Source: Hyphomonadaceae bacterium (GTDB lineage: Bacteria > Pseudomonadota > Alphaproteobacteria > Caulobacterales > Aquidulcibacteraceae). From it: 64,000 bases of DNA. Below, one piece after another: positions 7,334-18,600 of this stretch. Each line of letters starts with the position of its first letter. Position 1 is the first letter of the stretch. Below the pieces are notes generated by a model. The model made no database searches and was not told the DNA's origin. It saw only the letters and a list, made by a program, of their open reading frames with translations. The translations under genes and the position numbers were made by a program. The stretch lies in NCBI GenBank assembly GCA_016791445.1, contig JAEUMP010000006.1, positions 124,001-188,000 of the forward strand. Reading direction: 5' to 3'.

Positions 7334-7890
7334 CGCCGACGCTCGAAGACAATCGTCGGCGCGCCGCCGTACTCCGTGCGCCGCAGTTCGCGGAAGCCCA
7401 CCTTCTCCGCCACGCGGATCGACGCGCCGTTCTCCGGCGCGATAATGCACACGAACCGGTCCGATTTCAGATTGGCGTCGCCCCACGCCGCCGCCGCGGC
7501 CACGGCCTCGCTCGCCACGCCCTTGCCATGTGCGGCCGGCGCCAGCGACCATCCCATCTCCGGCGCGTCGCCGAAGGGCGGCTCGATCTCGCGCCTGAAA
7601 TCCGCGAGGCCCACCTCACCGAGAAAGGCGCCGGTCGCCTTGTCCTCGACGACCCAGAACCCATAGCCGAGCATCGCCCAGTGGCCGTGATAGCGCAGAA
7701 GGCGCGCCCATGTTTCGCTCCGCGAGAACGGCCGTCCGCCGATAAACCGGGTCACGTCCGGATGCGCCCACATCGCCGCGCAGGCGTCGAAGTCCGAAAG
7801 CACATGGCCGCGCAGGATGAAACGCGGCGTGTCGAGTACCGGGATGAGGACGGGCGATTGAACGGGCGATTGGATTGGGGCTGTGCTCAT
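7330..7890 (-). CDS. GNAT-family N-acetyltransferase
   Basis: A 186-residue RimJ/RimL-type acetyltransferase (Acetyltransf_3-like). TPRFILRGHVLSDFDACAAMW opens the domain; WSLAPAAHGKGVASEAVAAAAAW is the acetyl-CoA-binding motif A and ENGASIRVAEKVGFRELR the motif B region. The ATG at 7890 is preferred; an in-frame ATG at 7926 would reduce the gap to the divergent flavoprotein gene to 8 bp. The stop overlaps the GTG of the globin gene. Substrate unknown: protein N-termini and small amines are both possible. Confidence 0.9.
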   Translation of the reverse strand: MSTAPIQSPVQSPVLIPVLDTPRFILRGHVLSDFDACAAMWAHPDVTRFIGGRPFSRSETWARLLRYHGHWAMLGYGFWVVEDKATGAFLGEVGLADFRREIEPPFGDAPEMGWSLAPAAHGKGVASEAVAAAAAWGDANLKSDRFVCIIAPENGASIRVAEKVGFRELRRTEYGGAPTIVFERRR

Positions 7891-9363: not shown

Positions 9364-9403
9364 TTGCATAAGACTCATGTTCGCATTCGCGGGACGAGGG
9401 ACG

Positions 9404-9997
9404 ATGGACGGCGAAGATCCCATCGAGATCGATCTCAAGACGCTCTGGGACGGGTTCGGCCGGGGCGATCCGAAGGCGCGCGACCGCCTCCTCGCCCTGC
9501 ACTATGACGAGATGCGCCGCGTGGCCCGCAAGGTCCTGCGCGACGAAGGGGCTAAGCTGAACATCCAGCCCACCGAACTTGCGAACGAGGCAGCGATCCG
9601 GCTGATGAACCTCGACCGCATCCAGTGGAAGGAGCGCACGCATTTCCTCGCGATGTCCGCCCGGGTGATGCGCCAGATCCTGATCGACGAGGTCCGCCGC
9701 TTCCGCGCACAGAAGCGCCAGGCGCCGCCGGTCGTCACCCGCTGGGTCGATCACGCCGCCGACGAGAAGGCCCGCGCGCCGCTCGACCTGGAAGCCTTCG
9801 ACGACAGTCTCACCCGGCTCGCCGCGATTGATCCCGACAAGGCGCGGCTCGTGGAGATGCGCTTCTTCGCGGGGCTGACCATCGAAGAGATCGCTCAGAT
9901 GGACGGCATTTCGGAGTCCACCGTGAAGCGCCAGTGGCGCACGGCCCGCGCCTGGCTGCTGAAGGATCTCGGTCAGGACGAGTCGGACGACGGCTGA
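9404..9997 (+). CDS. ECF-type RNA polymerase sigma factor
   Basis: A 197-residue sigma factor of the Sigma70_ECF (PF07638-like) type. Region 2 is visible in LLALHYDEMRRVARKVLRD and THFLAMSARVMRQILIDEVRR, and region 4 in GLTIEEIAQMDGISESTVKRQWRTARAWL. It should direct polymerase to a small regulon. ATG 9404 follows GAGGGACG. The kinase gene starts 2 bp after its stop. Such sigma factors are known to be paired with Ser/Thr kinases (for example EcfK-PknS in Xanthomonas, ECF43), where phosphorylation replaces a classical anti-sigma factor. No anti-sigma gene is present here, which fits that model. Confidence 0.9.
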   Translation: MDGEDPIEIDLKTLWDGFGRGDPKARDRLLALHYDEMRRVARKVLRDEGAKLNIQPTELANEAAIRLMNLDRIQWKERTHFLAMSARVMRQILIDEVRRFRAQKRQAPPVVTRWVDHAADEKARAPLDLEAFDDSLTRLAAIDPDKARLVEMRFFAGLTIEEIAQMDGISESTVKRQWRTARAWLLKDLGQDESDDG

Positions 9998-9999
9998 CG

Positions 10000-12450
10000 A
10001 TGGACCTCGCCCTCGAACGCCGCGCGATGAAGACGTTCGAGGAGTCGCTCCTCGAAGCGCCGGATGATCAGGACGCCTGGATCGAAGCGCAGTGCGCCGA
10101 CGACCCCGCCCTGCGCAAGGCGGCTCTGGCGCTGCTTAACGCCGCCCGCCACGCCACCGCCTTCCCGACAGAAATGCCCGCTGCAGGCTCGACGCGCATC
10201 GCCGAGATCGCGCCGCCGGAACGCGTCGGCGCATGGAAGCTGACGGAACGCATCGGCGCCGGCGGGATGGGGGATGTGTGGCGCGCGGAACGCGACGATG
10301 GCCTCTTCGACCAGTCGGTTGCGGTGAAGCTGCTTCGACCCAGCCTCTACGCCGCCGCGTCGGCCGCCTATTTCGACACCGAGCGCCGCGTGCTCGCGCG
10401 TCTGCGCCACAAGAACATCGCGCAGCTCTACGACGGCGGCGCTGCGGAGTCGGGCATCGCGTGGTTCGCGATGGAATTGCTCACGGGCGATCCCATCGAT
10501 GTGCATGTGAAGAAGAACGCGCTGGAGCCGAAGGCCGTCGCCCAGCTGGTGATCGACGTGTGCGCCGGCGTGCAGCACGCGCACGCGGCGTCGGTGGTCC
10601 ATGCGGACATCAAGCCGTCCAACATCATCGTCGATGGCGACGGCGTGGTGAAACTGCTCGACTTCGGCATCGCGCAGGTTCTGACGGCGCAGGCCGGCGA
10701 CGACAAACTGGAAACCGGCGCCTACCCGCTGACACCCGCCTATTCGAGTCCCGCGCGTCTTGCCGGCGAGCGTCCGACGCCGAGCGACGACGTCTTCGCC
10801 CTCGGCGCGATGCTGTTCGAGCTTCTCACCGGCACACCGCGCGATGCGACGGCGCGCCTTCCGTTATCGCTCGTCGACGCGCTCGAACCGGGCGACCCCC
10901 GGACGGAAATTCTGGAGGGTGATCTCGCCTTCATCGTCGCCAGAGCGACCGATCCGCGCCCCGATCACCGCTACGCCAGCGCCAGCGCCCTCGCGAGCGA
11001 TCTGGAGAACTGGCTCGCATTGCGCCCCCTTGCCGCGCGTCCGCGCGACTGGCGCTACGAGACCAGACTCTTCGTGCGCCGTCACCGCATCGGCGTCGCC
11101 GCCACCGCGGCCGCGATCCTCGGCCTGCTTACGGCGCTCATCGTGACGGGCATCCTGTACAGCAACGCCGAGCACTCCCGCGCCGAAGCGGAGAAGCGGT
11201 TCTCGGAAGTCCGCGCGCTCTCGAAATTCCAGCTCTTCGATCTCTACGACGCACTCGCACAGATCCCCGGCACGACCGAGACCCGCTTCCGCCTTGCGCG
11301 CGTGGGGCAGTCCTATCTCGACAATCTGGTCTATTCGCCCGGCAACTCACCCGAACTGCGTCTGGAGGCCGCCGCCGGGTATATTCGCCTTGCGGAAGTT
11401 CAGGGCGTGCCGACCGTGCCGAACCTCGGCGATCTCGAAAGCGCCCGCAACAATCTGCATCTCGCCGACGTGATGCTGCAGTCGATCAACCTGCCGGGCG
11501 CTTCGCTCGAACGGGCGCGGGCGAACCTGCTGCTCGCCACCATCGCCATCCAGGCGGACCAGGACATGGACGCAGGCAAGAAGCACGTGGCCGAAGCGGC
11601 GCGTCTGCTCGGCCCGCCGCCGTCGACGCCGAACATGGAGTGGCTCGACACGCAGCAGGCGCTCTATCTCCGGGAAATGCAGATCGCCGACTGGGAGGAG
11701 CGTTTCGCCGACGTGCGCGCGATCGCGGCGAAGGCGCTCGCCGCTCTCGAAACCTGGCGCGGAGACATGCGCCTCGACGACAAGTATCCGCGCTGGCGGG
11801 CGCGCGCGATGGCCATGGCCGCAAGCGCGCGCTGGTATCAGGGCGACAAGGTCGGTGCGTTGCCTGTCTATGAGAACGCCAACGCCCTCCTCCGCGAGGC
11901 GCTGGTGCGGATGCCCAACCGCGCGAGCCTGATGAAAGAGCTGATCATCAGCAACTACGAGATCGTCACGACGCTGGAGAGTCTCGGCCGCTCCCGGGAG
12001 GCGATCGTGCGCATGCGCGAAAGCCTCGCCTACACCAGCCGTCTGCTCGAGATCGAAGCCCGCGACCAGAGCCTGCGCCGCATGCGCGCGTTGCACCGCG
12101 ACGCGCTGGCGCAGTTGCTTGCCACGAACGGCCGGTTCGAGGAGGCGCTCCGGGAGGAGGCCGCCGTGGTGGAGGAGACGCGCGCGATCCATCTTGAGAG
12201 CCCCGGCGAGCCGCGCACGCTGCGCGATCACGCTTTTCACGTCATGGTCTTCGGCACGATCAACTGGCGCGCGGGTAACCGGAAGGCTGCCTGCACGCAC
12301 TGGGCGGAAGCCGAGTCCATGTTCAAGACGCTCAAGGCAGGTGCTGCGCTCACGCCGTACGACGAGCGGGTCAATCTCGGATTTGTCACGCACAATCTGG
12401 AGGTCTGCGCCGGCAAGAAGCCCGCTTCCGCCATCAAACTCTCCGAATGA
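10000..12450 (+). CDS. Membrane Ser/Thr protein kinase with TPR-like sensor
   Basis: An 816-residue Hanks-type kinase. A short helical N-terminus precedes the kinase domain: glycine loop GAGGMGDVW (about 86-94), K110 in VAVKLL, catalytic loop H201-A202-D203-IKPSN, D221 in LDFGIAQ, and TPAYSSPARL. The usual HRD arginine is Ala, so this is a non-RD kinase not expected to need activation-loop phosphorylation. One membrane segment follows at about 364-386, then about 430 residues of helical repeats resembling TPRs, probably periplasmic. The gene is 2 bp after the ECF sigma gene, so the sigma factor is the likely target. Confidence 0.93.
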   Translation: MDLALERRAMKTFEESLLEAPDDQDAWIEAQCADDPALRKAALALLNAARHATAFPTEMPAAGSTRIAEIAPPERVGAWKLTERIGAGGMGDVWRAERDDGLFDQSVAVKLLRPSLYAAASAAYFDTERRVLARLRHKNIAQLYDGGAAESGIAWFAMELLTGDPIDVHVKKNALEPKAVAQLVIDVCAGVQHAHAASVVHADIKPSNIIVDGDGVVKLLDFGIAQVLTAQAGDDKLETGAYPLTPAYSSPARLAGERPTPSDDVFALGAMLFELLTGTPRDATARLPLSLVDALEPGDPRTEILEGDLAFIVARATDPRPDHRYASASALASDLENWLALRPLAARPRDWRYETRLFVRRHRIGVAATAAAILGLLTALIVTGILYSNAEHSRAEAEKRFSEVRALSKFQLFDLYDALAQIPGTTETRFRLARVGQSYLDNLVYSPGNSPELRLEAAAGYIRLAEVQGVPTVPNLGDLESARNNLHLADVMLQSINLPGASLERARANLLLATIAIQADQDMDAGKKHVAEAARLLGPPPSTPNMEWLDTQQALYLREMQIADWEERFADVRAIAAKALAALETWRGDMRLDDKYPRWRARAMAMAASARWYQGDKVGALPVYENANALLREALVRMPNRASLMKELIISNYEIVTTLESLGRSREAIVRMRESLAYTSRLLEIEARDQSLRRMRALHRDALAQLLATNGRFEEALREEAAVVEETRAIHLESPGEPRTLRDHAFHVMVFGTINWRAGNRKAACTHWAEAESMFKTLKAGAALTPYDERVNLGFVTHNLEVCAGKKPASAIKLSE

Positions 12451-12505: not shown

Positions 12506-13291
12506 ATGACTGGCTGGCAGCACCTGTCCCAAGAACCGCCGAAGCCGAAGAGGGGATTCTCCAATCCGTTCGGCGGCGCGCCGCGCGACCCATCGGGCGA
12601 TCCGACTGGCGGACAGAAGCGCAAGCGCTGGGGCCTCGCCATTCTCGGCCTGATCGTCGTGCTCGCCGGCGTCGACCAGATGACGGGCGGCAAGATCTTC
12701 AACGAGAGCGGCACGAACCAGTTCGTCCAGCAGAACAACTACGACCCGAGGGCCGGCGTCTGGCAGCCGAAGCCCGGCGAACCGATTCCACCACCCGTCG
12801 ACCTGCCGATCCAGAACCTGCGTCAGGAAACGGAAGTCTGGTGCTGGGCGGCGGTGTCGCAGCAGATCATCTATTCGCTCCGCGGGCAGCAAAACACGCC
12901 GGCGCAGTGCGCCCTCGTGGCGATGGCCAACGGCGCGGAGCCGGGCGTGTGCTGCAACGGCTACAACCAGCAATGCGTCACCACCGGTTCGCTGGACCAG
13001 ATCCGCAGCCTCATCCAGCAATTCGGCGGCCGCCCCTCGAACATCGCCGAGCCCACCGACCCGATGACGCTCTACAAGACGCTGGCCGCCGGCCATCCCG
13101 TCATCATCGCCATCCAGCAGCAGGGCGCGCAGTCCGGGCACGTCATCGTCGTGCGCGGCATGACTTTCATGCAGACCCAGAATGGCATCGAGCCGGTGTT
13201 GCACATCAACGACCCGATGGCCGTCTACACGCAGCCCGTGCCCTTCCGGCAGCTGCAGCAGATGTGGAAGGCCGCAATCATCGTGAACTGA
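12506..13291 (+). CDS. Membrane-anchored papain-like cysteine peptidase
   Basis: A 261-residue protein: a Pro/Gly-rich cytoplasmic N-terminus, one membrane segment (about 42-56, WGLAILGLIVVLAGV) and a periplasmic domain resembling papain-like bacterial peptidases (PF12385 type). Catalytic candidates are C113 in VWCWAAVSQ, H212 in SGHVIVVRG and N235/D236 in HINDP. C149, C150 and C157 could form disulfides. ATG 12506 follows GGAG with 8-nt spacing; the longer frame upstream only shadows the kinase gene. It is 55 bp after the kinase, so the group sigma-kinase-protease may be one unit. Substrate unknown. Confidence 0.82.
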   Translation: MTGWQHLSQEPPKPKRGFSNPFGGAPRDPSGDPTGGQKRKRWGLAILGLIVVLAGVDQMTGGKIFNESGTNQFVQQNNYDPRAGVWQPKPGEPIPPPVDLPIQNLRQETEVWCWAAVSQQIIYSLRGQQNTPAQCALVAMANGAEPGVCCNGYNQQCVTTGSLDQIRSLIQQFGGRPSNIAEPTDPMTLYKTLAAGHPVIIAIQQQGAQSGHVIVVRGMTFMQTQNGIEPVLHINDPMAVYTQPVPFRQLQQMWKAAIIVN

Positions 13292-13360: not shown

Positions 13361-13951
13361 TCAGGTGGAATAGGTGTCCACGCCCTCGTCGTAGCTGTCG
13401 GCGTTCTCGGCGTCCTCGATCTCGTCGCCGCCGCCGCCGTAGTCCGCCGCCACCTCGACTTCGTCGGCGGCGTCATCGGCAAGGTCCTCTGCGGTTTCGA
13501 ATTCGCCGGCTTCCGCCGCATCGACAGCCGCTTCGGCTTTGTCGTCGGCGATTTCCTGATGGTAGTCGGCGTTGTCGAGATCCATCTGGTCGTAGTCCGC
13601 ATCGCGGATGGCCAACTGGGCCTCAAGCGGGTCGTCGCCCTTTTCCTCGACTTCCTTCAGTTCGTATTCGGCCTTGTCCGAAAGCTCCCGCGCCTTGTCG
13701 TAATCCCCGTCGGCGGCGGCCTTCGCCTGGTCGACCTGCAGGTCCTCGGCATTCTCGCGGGACTCGTCGGCGTCACGGGCGTTGGAGATCACTGCGTCGA
13801 GATCGAGATCTGCCAGAGTGCCGTCGGCGGCCGCCTGTTCGAGAACATTGCGGGCCGATTGCTGCGCGCCATCGGAGAGGCTCGCCATCTGGATCTGGAA
13901 ATCGCTCGTCCCCTCCGTGGGGAACAGGTCATCGAGAGTACGTGCGGCCAT
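13361..13951 (-). CDS. Acidic Ala/Asp/Glu-rich helical protein, unknown
   Basis: A 196-residue, strongly acidic protein with no signal peptide or membrane segment. After LDDLFPTEGTSDFQIQMASLSDGAQQ it becomes a run of short amphipathic helices built on Ala, Asp and Glu (AEYELKEVEEKGD, AEAAVDAAEAGEFETAEDLA), ending in a Gly/Asp/Tyr tail. I recognise no family. It is the last gene of the eight-gene operon, 32 bp after the coiled-coil gene and just before the bidirectional terminator. A scaffold or sequestering partner is possible but unsupported. Confidence 0.72.
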   Translation of the reverse strand: MAARTLDDLFPTEGTSDFQIQMASLSDGAQQSARNVLEQAAADGTLADLDLDAVISNARDADESRENAEDLQVDQAKAAADGDYDKARELSDKAEYELKEVEEKGDDPLEAQLAIRDADYDQMDLDNADYHQEIADDKAEAAVDAAEAGEFETAEDLADDAADEVEVAADYGGGGDEIEDAENADSYDEGVDTYST

Positions 13952-13983: not shown

Positions 13984-14703
13984 TCAGTCGGAATAGGGGT
14001 CATCCTCATCGTCTTCATCGTCGTCGTCTTCGTCGGCTTCCGCCTCGATGGCCTCCTCGCGCTCTTTCGCCTCCTGCTCGATGCGCTCCATTTCGGCTTC
14101 GTGGCGCTCCTGCTGCTGGTCCATCAACTCCTGTTCGCGCGCCTGGCGATCGGCGGCGGCTTCGGCCTCCTCCGCTTCACGCTTGCGCTGGGCGGCGGCC
14201 TCTTCCTCGTGAAGGTTCTCGACGTGCACATCCTCCTGGACCTCACGCACCTCGAGTTCGCCGGCGGCGGTCGCCGTCTCGATCACCTTCTGCGCGGCGG
14301 CGTTCTGGGCTTGTTGCATCTGCTGGGCGTACTGGGAGGCTGCCTGCGCGGCCTGCATGGCCTGCTGTGTCGCCCACGGCGTACGTCCAGATTCCTCGGT
14401 CTGCGCTTCGACCTCGGCATGCTCGAGCGCTTCTGCGGCGCCGTCCACGATCGCCTCGCCCTGCACCTGCGCCTCGGAAACGTCGAACTCCGCCGCCCCA
14501 TCCGCGAGGCCGTCGGCGATCTTGCTTGCGCTTTCGCCGATCGTCGCCATCGACGCGTTCAATGCTTCGCTGATCGTGCCGAGCTGCGACGTCGCGGCCT
14601 GACCGATATTCGTCGCCGCAGGACTGATGGCGTCCTTCACGCCGCCGATGGCGTCGCCGATACGGCCCATGAAACCGCCGGAGGATTTGTCGTCGTCGGC
14701 CAT
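13984..14703 (-). CDS. Coiled-coil protein with acidic tail, unknown
   Basis: A 239-residue protein. The first 90 residues (GFMGRIGDAIGGVKDAISPAA, then ASMATIGESASKIADGLADG) are small-residue amphipathic helices, as in membrane-surface-binding proteins. The middle is Gln/Ala-rich (AMQAAQAASQYAQQMQQA), then a long Glu/Arg/Gln coiled coil, ending in about 20 almost purely Asp/Glu residues. ATG 14703 with AAGGAG 9 nt upstream is preferred over a TTG six codons earlier. It starts 14 bp after the M48-like gene ends. The pattern loosely recalls PspA-like or tail-anchored scaffold proteins; I do not assign it. Confidence 0.75.
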   Translation of the reverse strand: MADDDKSSGGFMGRIGDAIGGVKDAISPAATNIGQAATSQLGTISEALNASMATIGESASKIADGLADGAAEFDVSEAQVQGEAIVDGAAEALEHAEVEAQTEESGRTPWATQQAMQAAQAASQYAQQMQQAQNAAAQKVIETATAAGELEVREVQEDVHVENLHEEEAAAQRKREAEEAEAAADRQAREQELMDQQQERHEAEMERIEQEAKEREEAIEAEADEDDDDEDDEDDPYSD

Positions 14704-14717
14704 CGTCTGGTTCTCCT

Positions 14718-16049
14718 TCAATCACCGACCTGGTCAGGACGCGGCTGCGCCGGCTTCTTCGGCTTCACCGCCAGGACTTTCCCGCATGACGGGTTCGGGC
14801 AGCGGACATTCACGGGCTTTTCGCCCACCAGTGCGGCGCGCTTCACGCGCATCGGCGCCTGACAGGAGACGCAGGTGAGGCGCACCGTGTCGTCGTCTGC
14901 CTTTTCCTTCTTTCCGGCGCCGGCGGCCTTCACTTCCTTCGGCGGGCGGAGGCGTTTGTCTTCCGCGTCGTGGTGTTCGATCACCGCGCGCCAGCCCTGC
15001 ATGTCCTCGCTGCCGTGGAAGTCCCGCGCGAGCTTCAGGCGCCGGGCGATGAAGGGCACCGAGCTCATCGTCGCTTCGACGGCCTGCATGGTCACGTCAT
15101 CGCTCTCGTCTTCCTGCAGCGCCCAGTCCTCCATGTTGAGACGGGCGTGGATCGGGAAGGATTTCAGCGTCCACTGCAGCAACACGCGGCGCGTAATGTC
15201 GAGATTGCCCAGCGCGAGCTGACCGGCGCGATCCGCCGTGATCTCCGAATGCCGCGCCCACGCCATGAGCGGCGCCTCGAACGCGCTCTCGACGATCTTC
15301 GCGGGGTTCAGGAACTGCATGACGCCGTCGCCCATGATGGTGCGCTGCGACTGCTTGCGCCCCATCAGAAGCTCGAACGCCGTGCGCCAGACAGCGTGGC
15401 CGGCGCGCACCCGGCCCATCTCGCGCGCGATCATGAAGGCGAGGTCGTCGCCCTTGAAACTGACGAGGACCGACCCGAGCACGACGAAGGCATAGCTGTC
15501 CGTGCCGAGCGTCTTGGCGTCCCACATCTGCTCGCCGGAAACGTATATCTCCGGCATGCGATCGAGGCCGACGATGCGCGCCATGCGCACGGCGAGCGCA
15601 AACACATCCGGCATCTGGTTTTCCGAGAGGCGCACGCCGTTCACGGACGCTTCGAACCATGGTCTTCCGTAGCGCTCGGAAATGTGATGCGCAGCCGCGG
15701 TCACCGGCCCCAGCGACTGCAGGCGCGACATCGCTTCGGCGTCGAAGCGCCAGAGGAAGGCGTCCACCGGCAGCTGGTAACCCACGCCAAGCGGACGCAG
15801 CCACCGGCACTCCCGGCAAATCACCTCCTGGACAGGCAACTTCGAGCCATCGCCGCCGCAGGTGGTGCAATGGTAGCCCGGCATGTACGCCGCGCCATGA
15901 TCGGCGGCGGCGACGCCCGGCGGCGGCGCATGCATGTCGAGGCCGCAGCCCTGACAGAAGCGCACGCCTGCCTCCGACCGCGTCCCGCAATTGGTGCAGA
16001 AGGCCGCGCCGCCTGCGGGAGGTGTTGTCGGAGGGACGGGCGCGTTCAT
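14718..16049 (-). CDS. Zinc-ribbon M48-like protein with degenerate catalytic site
   Basis: A 443-residue protein. N-terminal zinc knuckles are C18-C21-C32-C35 and C61-C64-C78-C81. The middle resembles an M48 metallopeptidase: FAFMIAREMGRVRAGHAVW aligns with the usual HELGH helix, and SEITADRAG (E269) matches the third zinc-ligand motif. The two zinc histidines are Arg (R209-E-M-G-R213), so the protein should not bind catalytic zinc. A C-terminal CxxC zinc finger (LTCVSC and CPNPSC) follows. No membrane segment is obvious, unlike HtpX. It is in an operon with a second zinc-ribbon protein. A pseudo-protease binding or scaffold role is inference. Confidence 0.8.
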   Translation of the reverse strand: MNAPVPPTTPPAGGAAFCTNCGTRSEAGVRFCQGCGLDMHAPPPGVAAADHGAAYMPGYHCTTCGGDGSKLPVQEVICRECRWLRPLGVGYQLPVDAFLWRFDAEAMSRLQSLGPVTAAAHHISERYGRPWFEASVNGVRLSENQMPDVFALAVRMARIVGLDRMPEIYVSGEQMWDAKTLGTDSYAFVVLGSVLVSFKGDDLAFMIAREMGRVRAGHAVWRTAFELLMGRKQSQRTIMGDGVMQFLNPAKIVESAFEAPLMAWARHSEITADRAGQLALGNLDITRRVLLQWTLKSFPIHARLNMEDWALQEDESDDVTMQAVEATMSSVPFIARRLKLARDFHGSEDMQGWRAVIEHHDAEDKRLRPPKEVKAAGAGKKEKADDDTVRLTCVSCQAPMRVKRAALVGEKPVNVRCPNPSCGKVLAVKPKKPAQPRPDQVGD

Positions 16050-16059
16050 CGCATCGGAC

Positions 16060-17016
16060 CTAGAGGCGCTTCAGGAGTTCGGCCTTCTTGGCCTCGAATT
16101 CCTCGGTCGTGAGGATGCCGCTGTCGCGCAGCTTCCCGAGGCGCTCGAGCTGCTCGATCGGCGAAGGCTCGGCGGCGGCCACAGGCGGTGCAACCGGCGG
16201 CGCCGCAGGGGGCGCAACTGGGGGCGCAACCGGGGGGGGCGTGTACTGCTGCGCCGGTTGTTGCGGTTGTTGTTGTGCGAACGGGTTCGACCCGCCGCCC
16301 ATGCCGGGCACCTTGAGATCCATCTTCGGCATCTGGAAGCCGCCACCCTGCACCGGCGCAGCGCCGCCGCCGCCGGCGAGATCGAGCAGAAGCTTGTTGG
16401 CGACCTTGCGCGGAAAATCGCTTGAGAACTGCCACGCCGTCAGCGCCAGCGCGATGACCATGATGAGGATGTTGAACCCCGCGAGATGCATTGTGTAGAT
16501 GTTCGACGCCGTCATCATCGCGGACAGCACGCCGATCACAGCGAGCGCCGCGAACATGCCGATCGTCGAGCCCCAGTCCACCGACATCCGCGCCTGCACC
16601 ACGGTCTGCTGCGGCCCCTGCGGCGTCAGCGTCAGCGTGCCGCGATAGCGCTGGGTCATGCCCAGCTTCTTGTCGGCGACTTCGACCATGATCGTCGACG
16701 GCGGTTGCTGGCCGATCGGCTGGGCGTTGCACGACGGCAGCGTGCGAACGATGTGATCGAAGGTGGCGCGCTGGTCCATCGGCGCGACGCTCTGCGCCTG
16801 GAAGGCGCCCGCCATGCCGCCGCCCATGCCGAAGCGCGAGTTCAACGGCGGTTGCGGAGGCATCGGCGGCGGCATGGGCGGCAGCGGCGGGGGAACAGGC
16901 GCGCCGCCGCCGGCCGCCATGGGCGCACCGCACGATCCGCAGAATTTCGCCGTCTGCGCATTGGCGGCGCCGCACGCCGGACACGCGACCGTTCCTGCTC
17001 CTGCCGTCGTATTCAT
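16060..17016 (-). CDS. Zinc-ribbon membrane protein with C-terminal SHOCT domain
   Basis: A 318-residue protein with C12-C15-C26-C29 zinc ribbon (CPACGAANAQTAKFCGSCG), a Pro/Gly/Met linker, a globular segment of about 90 residues, two membrane segments (STIGMFAALAVIGVLSAMM and FNILIMVIALALTAW), a long Gln/Pro spacer of repeated PPVAP units, and a C-terminal SHOCT motif (IEQLERLGKLRDSGILTTEE). SHOCT domains are short oligomerisation modules often found at protein ends. It ends 10 bp before the M48-like gene start. Probably the membrane anchor of whatever complex this operon builds. Confidence 0.83.
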   Translation of the reverse strand: MNTTAGAGTVACPACGAANAQTAKFCGSCGAPMAAGGGAPVPPPLPPMPPPMPPQPPLNSRFGMGGGMAGAFQAQSVAPMDQRATFDHIVRTLPSCNAQPIGQQPPSTIMVEVADKKLGMTQRYRGTLTLTPQGPQQTVVQARMSVDWGSTIGMFAALAVIGVLSAMMTASNIYTMHLAGFNILIMVIALALTAWQFSSDFPRKVANKLLLDLAGGGGAAPVQGGGFQMPKMDLKVPGMGGGSNPFAQQQPQQPAQQYTPPPVAPPVAPPAAPPVAPPVAAAEPSPIEQLERLGKLRDSGILTTEEFEAKKAELLKRL

Positions 17017-17114: not shown

Positions 17115-17585
17115 TCAGCGCTTCGCGAAAATACTCTCCCACCACGCGACGAGCGGATTGGGATTGGCGGGCTTCGGCGGCGTCGGCACGACGCACGCGC
17201 CAGATGGCGGCCCGCAATAAGCGACCGCGCGCACCGACGGCACGATCGATATCTGGTCCCGCGCGACGGCGAGCCTGCCGCCTTCGCGATTGAAGAAACC
17301 TTCGAGCACGCGCGCGCGCATCAGCGCGTCCATGTCCGTCCAGATCGTGCCGCCGGCCGGGATCCGGGCGTCGCGTGTGGCGCAGGACACCTCGAACACG
17401 ACCGTATCCCCCACCCGAAGCCTGCCGCGAAAAACCTGCGCCACCCGCCCGTCGACGCGGCACTGGCCGTGATCGCCGTCGGGGCTGTAGGGCGAGACGG
17501 CGGGCCGGGCCACCTGAAGCACCTCCACCTGGATGTGCTCGGTCGCGGACATGCGCGCCTCTTCATAGACGTAGGGCGGCAGCAT
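17115..17585 (-). CDS. Hypothetical protein, possibly beta-rich
   Basis: A 156-residue protein of unknown family. A beta-rich N-terminal half (IQVEVLQVARPAVSP, GRVAQVFRGRLRVGDTVVFEVSC) suggests a small barrel; a helix (DALMRARVLEGFF) and a Pro-rich tail (PTPPKPANPNPLVAWW) follow. Three cysteines are present but there is no CxxC. ATG 17585 has GGAG 8 nt upstream; an upstream GTG at 17594 is possible. It lies between the 59-residue gene and the zinc-ribbon/SHOCT gene in the same operon. Confidence 0.7.
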   Translation of the reverse strand: MLPPYVYEEARMSATEHIQVEVLQVARPAVSPYSPDGDHGQCRVDGRVAQVFRGRLRVGDTVVFEVSCATRDARIPAGGTIWTDMDALMRARVLEGFFNREGGRLAVARDQISIVPSVRAVAYCGPPSGACVVPTPPKPANPNPLVAWWESIFAKR

Positions 17586-17609
17586 GGTCCTCACTCCACT
17601 CCGGATCGA

Positions 17610-17789
17610 CTATTCGCCGTCGCCGTCACCGTCGCCGCAGTCGTCGCCCTCGTCGATATCGAACTCTTCGGCGACGTCTTCGGCGATGTCCTGGACAGCT
17701 GTGCCCTGAGGCAGTCGATCTTCGATGATGGCCGCGATCCGCGGAACGTCGGGATCGAGGCCGTCTTCATCGGGTTCCCGCGCTACCAT
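17610..17789 (-). CDS. Small acidic 59-residue protein, unknown
   Basis: A 60-codon frame whose ATG overlaps the end of the lipoprotein gene (AATGGTAG), a normal translational-coupling arrangement. The product starts MVAREPDEDGLDPDVP, has a helix-like middle (RIAAIIEDRLPQGTAVQDIA) and ends in an Asp/Gly repeat (GDDCGDGDGDGE). It contains one Cys. Without it the operon would have a 197-bp gap, far larger than most of its other spacings. The acidic tail resembles those of the two acidic proteins later in the operon. Function unknown; the Asp/Gly tail could bind a divalent cation (inference). Confidence 0.65.
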   Translation of the reverse strand: MVAREPDEDGLDPDVPRIAAIIEDRLPQGTAVQDIAEDVAEEFDIDEGDDCGDGDGDGE

Positions 17790-18511
17790 TGGCCGCCCGG
17801 TTGCGGATAACCGCCGCCGCCCATGCCGGCGTGCTGCTGCACGGTGTTCATCATGACGGGCGCCGTCTGGTTGAAGCGCTCGGCGGCGTCGAACATCAGA
17901 TAGGCGCGCCCGCCATTTTGGCCGTTGGAGATCACCGCGATCATGCCCATGATCGGACGCCCCTGCATCGTGGTCTGGAAGCCGACCTGGCCGAACATGT
18001 CGGACGGGTCGTTCATCGCGCCCATGATCTGCGGCGGGCGATCAAAGTAACCCTGCTGGAGGCTCATCACCATCGCCTGCGAGAGCTGCGAGGCGGAGCG
18101 TGACCCGTTCAGCGTGGTCTGGAAGACAGCGCCGGCGGGCGACTGCAGCGGCTGCATGCCCTGCGGCGCACGCGCCTGCATCTGCCCGCCGCCGCCGCCC
18201 GGATAGCCGGGCTGGCTCGGATAGTTGGGTTGCTGCGGGTAGCCGGGCTGGTTCGGATAGCCGGGCTGGCCCGGATTGTTGGGGGCGTTGCTGCCAGGCC
18301 AGCCGGGCTGCTGGGGCTGCCCCGGAGTCGGCTGCATGGGCGGCCAACCGTTGGCGCCGGGGTTTTGCTGACCAGGACCCTGGGCGAAGGGACCCTGCGC
18401 ATTCGGATTGTTCGGATCGTTCGGATTCTGGCCGGCGGGGTTGCAGGCGGCGAGAACGCCGAGCATCGCCAGAACCACTACGCCGCGCTTCAGGTTCGAA
18501 GCTGTCCGCAT
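17783..18511 (-). CDS. Pro/Gly/Asn-rich lipoprotein
   Basis: A 242-residue predicted lipoprotein: MRTASNLKRGVVVLAMLGVLAAC, with lipobox LAAC. It is followed by a low-complexity region of about 85 residues rich in Pro, Gly, Asn and Gln, including repeated QPGYP units, then a globular domain (SPAGAVFQTTLNGSRSASQLSQ, MIAVISNGQNGGRAYLMFDAA). The ATG at 18511 has AGGAGG 7 nt upstream; the ATG at 18517 would sit on that site, so 18511 is chosen. Probably membrane-anchored on the periplasmic side. Family unknown. Second gene of the operon. Confidence 0.82.
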   Translation of the reverse strand: MRTASNLKRGVVVLAMLGVLAACNPAGQNPNDPNNPNAQGPFAQGPGQQNPGANGWPPMQPTPGQPQQPGWPGSNAPNNPGQPGYPNQPGYPQQPNYPSQPGYPGGGGGQMQARAPQGMQPLQSPAGAVFQTTLNGSRSASQLSQAMVMSLQQGYFDRPPQIMGAMNDPSDMFGQVGFQTTMQGRPIMGMIAVISNGQNGGRAYLMFDAAERFNQTAPVMMNTVQQHAGMGGGGYPQPGGQW

Positions 18512-18600
18512 GACCATCCCTCCTTGGCGACCGGGCCGGCCCGTTCCGGGCGAACTCTCGGTCTCATGTCAGGAGAGGCGCAGGGGCCCGGAAAACCGGG

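What the first reader, a model, noticed from the sequence alone, without database searches (positions are those of the whole stretch)
14718..16049. M48-like protein with both zinc histidines replaced by arginine
The helix that normally reads HELGH reads REMGR (R209 and R213), while the third-ligand motif SEITADRAG is kept. The nucleotides in this region read cleanly. Three zinc-finger clusters are added around the core. The conserved fold without the catalytic site suggests a pseudo-protease used as a binding scaffold or adaptor, comparable in principle to iRhom-type pseudo-enzymes.
Basis: partly seen in the sequence, partly recalled or inferred. Interest (0 to 1): 0.7.

Follow-up and report, generated by a model that had tools for sequence, protein, structure and literature searches.

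The report
Dead M48 protease in mobile cassette
A Caulobacterales bacterium and some of its relatives carry a protease-like protein whose zinc-cutting centre has been permanently dismantled but whose sequence is still kept by natural selection; it always travels with the same partner genes in a small insertable cassette, so it probably works as a binding scaffold rather than as an enzyme.

Summary
Window 14718-16049(-) encodes a 443-aa protein matching Pfam Peptidase_M48, with REMGR in place of HExxH and 12 cysteines in three zinc-ribbon-like clusters. The nine full-length family members (this one included), in two genera of one bacterial family, all lack HExxH. Arg209, the first zinc His, is invariant and written with different synonymous codons. 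The second His is Arg only in the window's genus; the sister genus keeps it but has Ala at the third-ligand Glu. The His of the HPx4R plug is lost everywhere. dN/dS is about 0.04-0.15. Profile comparison with intact M48 peptidases gives E 2.7e-26. The genome's seven other M48 genes are intact.

New here: the gene is the middle of an all-or-none module (zinc-ribbon/two-TM/SHOCT protein, pseudo-M48, acidic partner), found in 10 of 60 family genomes, in at least four genomic contexts, with a clean empty site showing a discrete insert of about 3.3 kb.

Best reading: a fixed pseudoprotease acting as cytosolic scaffold of a membrane-associated complex. Loss of canonical zinc-peptidase activity is near certain from sequence; the scaffold role is inference. 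Structure prediction was uninformative (only two admissible sequences).

The parts
14718..16049 (-). Pseudo-M48 protein, 443 aa: ZnR1 - ZnR2 - M48-like core (about 91-345) - linker - C-terminal ZnR3
   Evidence: ORF; Pfam PF01435; profile-profile match to intact M48 E 2.7e-26
15411..15425 (-). REMGR (residues 209-213), former HExxH
   Evidence: sequence; R209 invariant in 9 family members
15222..15248 (-). SEITADRAG (268-276), former third-ligand helix; E269 kept in this genus, Ala in the sister genus
15039..15062 (-). SVPFIARR (330-337), former active-site plug HPx4R with the His lost (V/T/N), Pro332 and Arg337 kept
   Evidence: motif definition from PMC7950410
15942..15998 (-). zinc-ribbon-like cluster 1 (C18, C21, C32, C35)
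   Evidence: Pfam DZR/Zn_Ribbon_1, below cut-off in this member; invariant Cys
15807..15869 (-). zinc-ribbon-like cluster 2 (C61, C64, C78, C81)
   Evidence: invariant Cys
14784..14873 (-). zinc-ribbon-like cluster 3 (C393, C396, C417, C422)
   Evidence: invariant Cys; pLDDT about 69-77 over 391-430 in the otherwise poor model; Zn_ribbon_4 hits in 6 of 9 members
16060..17016 (-). Partner 1: N-terminal zinc ribbon, two predicted TM helices (about 152-170, 176-194), Pro-rich linker, C-terminal SHOCT domain
   Evidence: Pfam SHOCT E 2.6e-9; hydropathy; same 10 genomes as the pseudo-M48
13984..14703 (-). Acidic, coiled-coil-like protein directly downstream (probable start ATG 14703 behind GAAGGAG); in the sister genus the slot holds a different, 93-aa acidic ORF
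13361..13951 (-). Partner 2: acidic (pI 4.05) protein, conserved in both genera
   Evidence: present in exactly the 9 genomes with a full-length pseudo-M48

Best explanation
The protein is a fixed pseudoprotease. It descends from a cytosolic-type M48 metallopeptidase (the kind annotated 'M48 family metallopeptidase' in Thermus, Bernardetia and Tsukamurella) that lost its zinc site and kept its core and substrate-groove segments. Shown: loss of the HExxH zinc site in all family members, purifying selection, three extra zinc-ribbon-like clusters, and obligate linkage to a membrane/SHOCT protein and an acidic protein in a discrete accessory cassette. Inferred: it now binds instead of cuts. The emptied cleft and/or the zinc ribbons hold the acidic partner (or another client), while the zinc-ribbon/2-TM/SHOCT protein tethers the complex to the inner face of the membrane. 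Inferred: Arg209 (with Arg213-Glu269 in this genus) fills the space and charge of the lost zinc and stabilises the helix pair. The most parsimonious order is loss of the first His before the two genera split, then loss of the second His in one genus and of the Glu in the other.
For: M48 homology across 234 columns; Pfam M48 in 9 of 9. Zinc-site positions: R209 9/9, 213 R or H, 269 E or A, 331 V/T/N. NG86 dN/dS about 0.04-0.15. All 7 other M48 genes of the genome and the sampled M48 loci of relatives keep HExxH. All-or-none co-occurrence of the three genes: pseudo-M48 10/60 (one cut by a contig end), SHOCT 10/60 in the same genomes, acidic 9/60. Discrete insertion: L036 flanks at 7714 and 11042 lie 58 bp apart in G031; G046 has the same site empty but carries the module elsewhere. 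Third-ligand helix and plug region have the highest invariance (0.65 each, against 0.42 overall). The pseudo-M48 is the most conserved gene of the module between genera: about 57%, against about 46% and 37%.
Against: No structural confirmation: two models with pLDDT 37 and 34. No direct evidence of binding or complex formation. Glu210 is kept in 8 of 9 although it would have no catalytic use, and His218/His267 are invariant, so some chemistry cannot be excluded. SHOCT was not found to oligomerise in the one published test (PMC3581485).
Confidence: 0.62

Rival explanations
1. The M48 core is only a structural carrier; the real function is nucleic-acid or protein recognition by the three zinc ribbons (a regulator or RNA/DNA-binding protein), with no role for the groove.
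For: 12 invariant Cys; ZnR3 20/43 invariant. [quoted passage not shown] Basic pI 8.2.
Against: The groove-associated segments (third-ligand helix, plug) are the most conserved, more than ZnR1 (0.37) or ZnR3 (0.47). The linked partners are a membrane protein and acidic proteins, not nucleic-acid enzymes.
Confidence: 0.2
2. The protein is still an enzyme: a rebuilt metal site (for example with His218, His267, Asp273 or Glu269) or metal-free chemistry with Glu210.
For: H121, H218, H267, H359 and D273 are invariant; Glu210 is kept in 8 of 9.
Against: His218, Asp273 and Arg274 are also present in intact M48 relatives, so they need no new role. Position 210 is Gln in L003, 269 is Ala in the sister genus and 213 is Arg in this one, so no classical metal/base set is conserved across the family.
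Confidence: 0.1
3. A decaying remnant on the way to a pseudogene.
For: Ligand residues differ between the genera, as under relaxed constraint on the active site.
Against: dN/dS about 0.04-0.15, open reading frames in all genomes, conserved partners.
Confidence: 0.02
4. The M48 match is spurious and the fold is different.
For: The pseudo family's own profile finds no solved M48 structure and the AF2 models are poor.
Against: Pfam above cut-off in the window protein and matches in 9/9; tblastn to annotated M48 peptidases at E 6e-14; hhalign E 2.7e-26 in register with HExGH, ExxxDRAG and the plug.
Confidence: 0.03

Closest known systems
Intact cytosolic-type M48 metallopeptidases (Thermus WP_244348179.1, Bernardetia WP_338815735.1, Tsukamurella WP_068742246.1)
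   Same: Core of about 230 residues aligned end to end, including edge-strand region, active-site helix, ADRAG helix and plug Pro/Arg
   Different: They keep HExGH, Glu and SHPx4R, and lack the zinc ribbons; none of the listed neighbours is annotated as a SHOCT protein
M48 peptidases HtpX and BepA (PF01435)
   Same: Same Pfam family; plug Pro and Arg retained
   Different: At least two of four metal ligands lost; no TM segment predicted in the protein; added zinc ribbons
FtsHi pseudo-proteases of chloroplasts (M41)
   Same: Fixed loss of HExxH, including first His to Arg in FtsHi4 (REAAV); kept as non-catalytic proteins (PMC11266112)
   Different: Different peptidase family (AAA+ M41), plant organelle, no zinc ribbons reported in what I read
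iRhoms (inactive rhomboids)
   Same: Pseudo-enzyme principle only (own knowledge)
   Different: Intramembrane serine-protease fold; unrelated
PSP-type operons with a membrane metallopeptidase, PspA-associated domains and an occasional SHOCT-like gene (PMC11237479)
   Same: A metallopeptidase gene next to a SHOCT-type protein
   Different: No PspA-family match among the module proteins by Pfam; the peptidase homologue here is dead and has no TM segment

Membership tests
Peptidase family M48 (PF01435), by descent | Profile match over the peptidase domain | tested here: met
   25.8 bits vs cut-off 20.3; 9/9 members match; hhalign E 2.7e-26 with intact members
Peptidase family M48, as active enzyme | HExxH motif | tested here: not met
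   REMGR here; REMGH or RQMGH in the sister genus
Peptidase family M48, as active enzyme | Third-ligand Glu on the next helix | tested here: inconclusive
   E269 kept in the window genus, Ala in all 7 members of the sister genus
Peptidase family M48, as active enzyme | HPx4R active-site plug (PMC7950410) | tested here: not met
   His is V/T/N; Pro332 and Arg337 invariant
Peptidase family M48 | M48 fold | tested here: inconclusive
   AF2 with two sequences gave mean pLDDT 36.6 and 34.1
Pseudoproteases (general class) | Catalytic residues lost in a fixed, conserved lineage under purifying selection | tested here: met
   9/9 lack HExxH, dN/dS 0.04-0.15
Pseudoproteases (general class) | No peptidase activity but a cellular function | not testable with these tools
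   needs purified protein and mutants
Known anti-phage defence systems (PADLOC-DB) | Match of cassette proteins to defence models | tested here: not met
   no match better than E 0.06 for the four cassette proteins

The most novel reading that the evidence does not exclude
The module is an undescribed accessory system of Caulobacterales, inserted as a cassette of about 3.3 kb at several sites, in which a metal-free M48 groove, with arginine in place of the first zinc-binding His, acts as a peptide-binding receptor that couples an acidic client to a zinc-ribbon/SHOCT membrane anchor.
Probability: 0.2. Interest if true: 0.72.

Novelty: new variant of a known kind. Interest (0 to 1): 0.5.

Why it matters
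A 2024 review of inactive metallopeptidase homologues contains no mention of M48 (term search, 0 occurrences), and I found no studied bacterial M48 pseudoprotease in the papers searched. This lineage gives natural variants at the ligand positions (R/H, E/A, V/T/N) in a protein under strong selection with defined, always co-occurring partner genes. That makes the question 'what does a metallopeptidase groove do without its metal' directly testable. The all-or-none cassette with a clean empty site also gives matched genomes for a gain/loss comparison.

Tried and rejected
Structure prediction of the full protein and of the core with the two admissible sequences was uninformative, so no fold search was run. 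Sequence search of the PDB with the protein or the pseudo family's profile gave no M48 hit; the 3cqb HtpX hit came from a profile that included intact members and is not used as evidence for the pseudo family itself. Phages and viral contigs gave no relative. The genome-contig scan with the single protein found only the congener, because its peptide patterns were window-specific. The phylum scan with the mixed profile returned M48 genes with intact HExxH, mostly HtpX-like by length and motif, and no close relative of the pseudo family. Defence-system models: no match for the module. Frameshift or pseudogene: rejected by open frames and dN/dS.

Full report
Observation. The frame 14718-16049 on the minus strand is open, starts with ATG and encodes 443 aa. 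The codons at 15411-15425 give REMGR at residues 209-213 and the sequence is clean. Pfam assigns residues 151-341 to Peptidase_M48 above the curated cut-off. Twelve cysteines form three zinc-ribbon-like clusters, two before and one after the core.

Family members. A search of the 60 held genomes of the bacterial family found nine full-length members, the window's own included, and one cut by a contig end. They come from two genera: 2 of 3 genomes of the window's genus and 8 (one of them the cut one) of one other genus. The one named relative, L011, is a MAG labelled Caulobacteraceae; its contig has the same length as that of G028 (105,891 bases), so G028 is very probably that MAG. Beyond the family none was found: 10 of 299 order genomes, the same ten, and 1 of 385 class genomes, the window's own.

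Catalytic site. In the nine-row alignment Arg209 is invariant and is encoded by CGC, CGG or CGT, so it is maintained and not a copying accident. Position 213 is Arg in the window's genus and His in the sister genus. The third-ligand position 269 is Glu in the window's genus and Ala in the sister genus. Position 210 is Gln once. M48 peptidases also share an HPx4R plug whose His can bind the zinc (PMC7950410). Here its Pro332 and Arg337 are invariant, but the His is V, T or N. Every member therefore lacks at least two of the four zinc-contacting residues, always including the first His. The most parsimonious history (inference) is loss of His209 and the plug His before the genera split, then His213 to Arg on one side and Glu269 to Ala on the other.

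It is a real M48 descendant. tblastn finds annotated M48 metallopeptidases of Thermus, Bernardetia, Tsukamurella and Rhodococcus at about 30% identity, down to E 6e-14. A profile-profile comparison with three such relatives aligns 234 columns at E 2.7e-26, in register with HExGH, the ExxxDRAG helix and the plug. The three relatives in that profile have intact sites. The seven other M48 genes of the window's genome and the sampled M48 loci of relatives keep HExxH. In a tree the two genera form one clade on a very long stem. Structure prediction could not confirm the fold, because only two sequences were admissible.

Selection. NG86 dN/dS between relatives is about 0.04-0.15. The segments with the highest invariance are the third-ligand helix and the plug (0.65 each), then the edge-strand region (0.58) and the pre-domain (0.56), against 0.42 overall and 0.45 for the former catalytic helix. 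This fits a kept groove without catalysis, but it is not proof.

Module. Upstream lies a protein with an N-terminal zinc ribbon, two predicted TM helices and a C-terminal SHOCT domain; downstream lie acidic proteins. The SHOCT protein occurs in the same ten genomes as the pseudo-M48 and in none of the other 50. The acidic protein 13361-13951 occurs in the nine with the full-length gene and in none of the other 51; the tenth module is cut by a contig end. The acidic protein was not found in a 240-genome class sample outside the window's own genome. The slot between the pseudo-M48 and the conserved acidic gene holds an acidic coil of about 240 aa in the window's genus and a different 93-aa ORF in the sister genus. 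These counts are not independent, since the genomes are related; the different genomic contexts below are the stronger argument for a functional unit.

Cassette. Five sister-genus loci carry the module between the same flanking genes; L034 and L040 carry it elsewhere, and the window's genus in a further context. In G031, which lacks the module, the two flanks that bound it in L036 (7714 and 11042) lie 58 bp apart, so the insert is about 3.3 kb. G046 has this site empty but holds the module at another locus. No integrase was seen in the conserved block; how it moves, or whether some of these patterns are losses, is unknown. GC content of the window's copy is not unusual.

Mechanism. Best supported: a pseudoprotease scaffold in a membrane-associated complex. 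Shown are the dead site, conservation and linkage. Inferred are the binding of the acidic partner, the tethering by the SHOCT protein, and the structural role of Arg209. SHOCT itself did not oligomerise in the published test (PMC3581485), but SHOCT-like domains are proposed as inner-membrane anchors (PMC11237479). Rivals are given with their tests in the structured fields.

Novelty. Pseudoproteases are a known kind, including metallopeptidase ones with a first-His-to-Arg change (FtsHi4, REAAV; PMC11266112). An M48 example with three zinc ribbons in an insertable obligate module appears undescribed in what I could search; the literature search was limited to the held open-access papers. I rate it a new variant of a known kind.

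Noticed in passing
window 12509-13291 (+): Single-TM papain-like protein (Pfam Peptidase_C70, E 2.3e-8, with WCWAA and GHVIVVRG motifs) convergent with the module; kept in the congener (L033) but not found at the sister-genus loci.
   Followed up: partly
window 9377-12450 (+): Sigma-factor-like gene followed by a Ser/Thr kinase-like gene with a long C-terminal part; the kinase matches PADLOC PD-T4-6 models only over the kinase domain, so this says little about defence.
   Followed up: no
window 17783-18517 (-) and 17115-17594 (-): Pro/Gly/Gln-rich lipoprotein-like protein and a small protein upstream of the module, both conserved in synteny in the congener L033 only.
   Followed up: partly
L036 7715-11041; G031 C1 about 3547207: Occupied and empty site of the cassette of about 3.3 kb, between an aminopeptidase-like gene and a glutathione-transferase-like gene; no integrase seen in the conserved block.
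   Followed up: partly
G054 C77:13937-14509, G041 C50:11542-12114, G045 C6:379827-380399: Frames of 613-834 aa with a partial M48 match (about 45 bits, profile positions 44-182 only), not examined.
   Followed up: no
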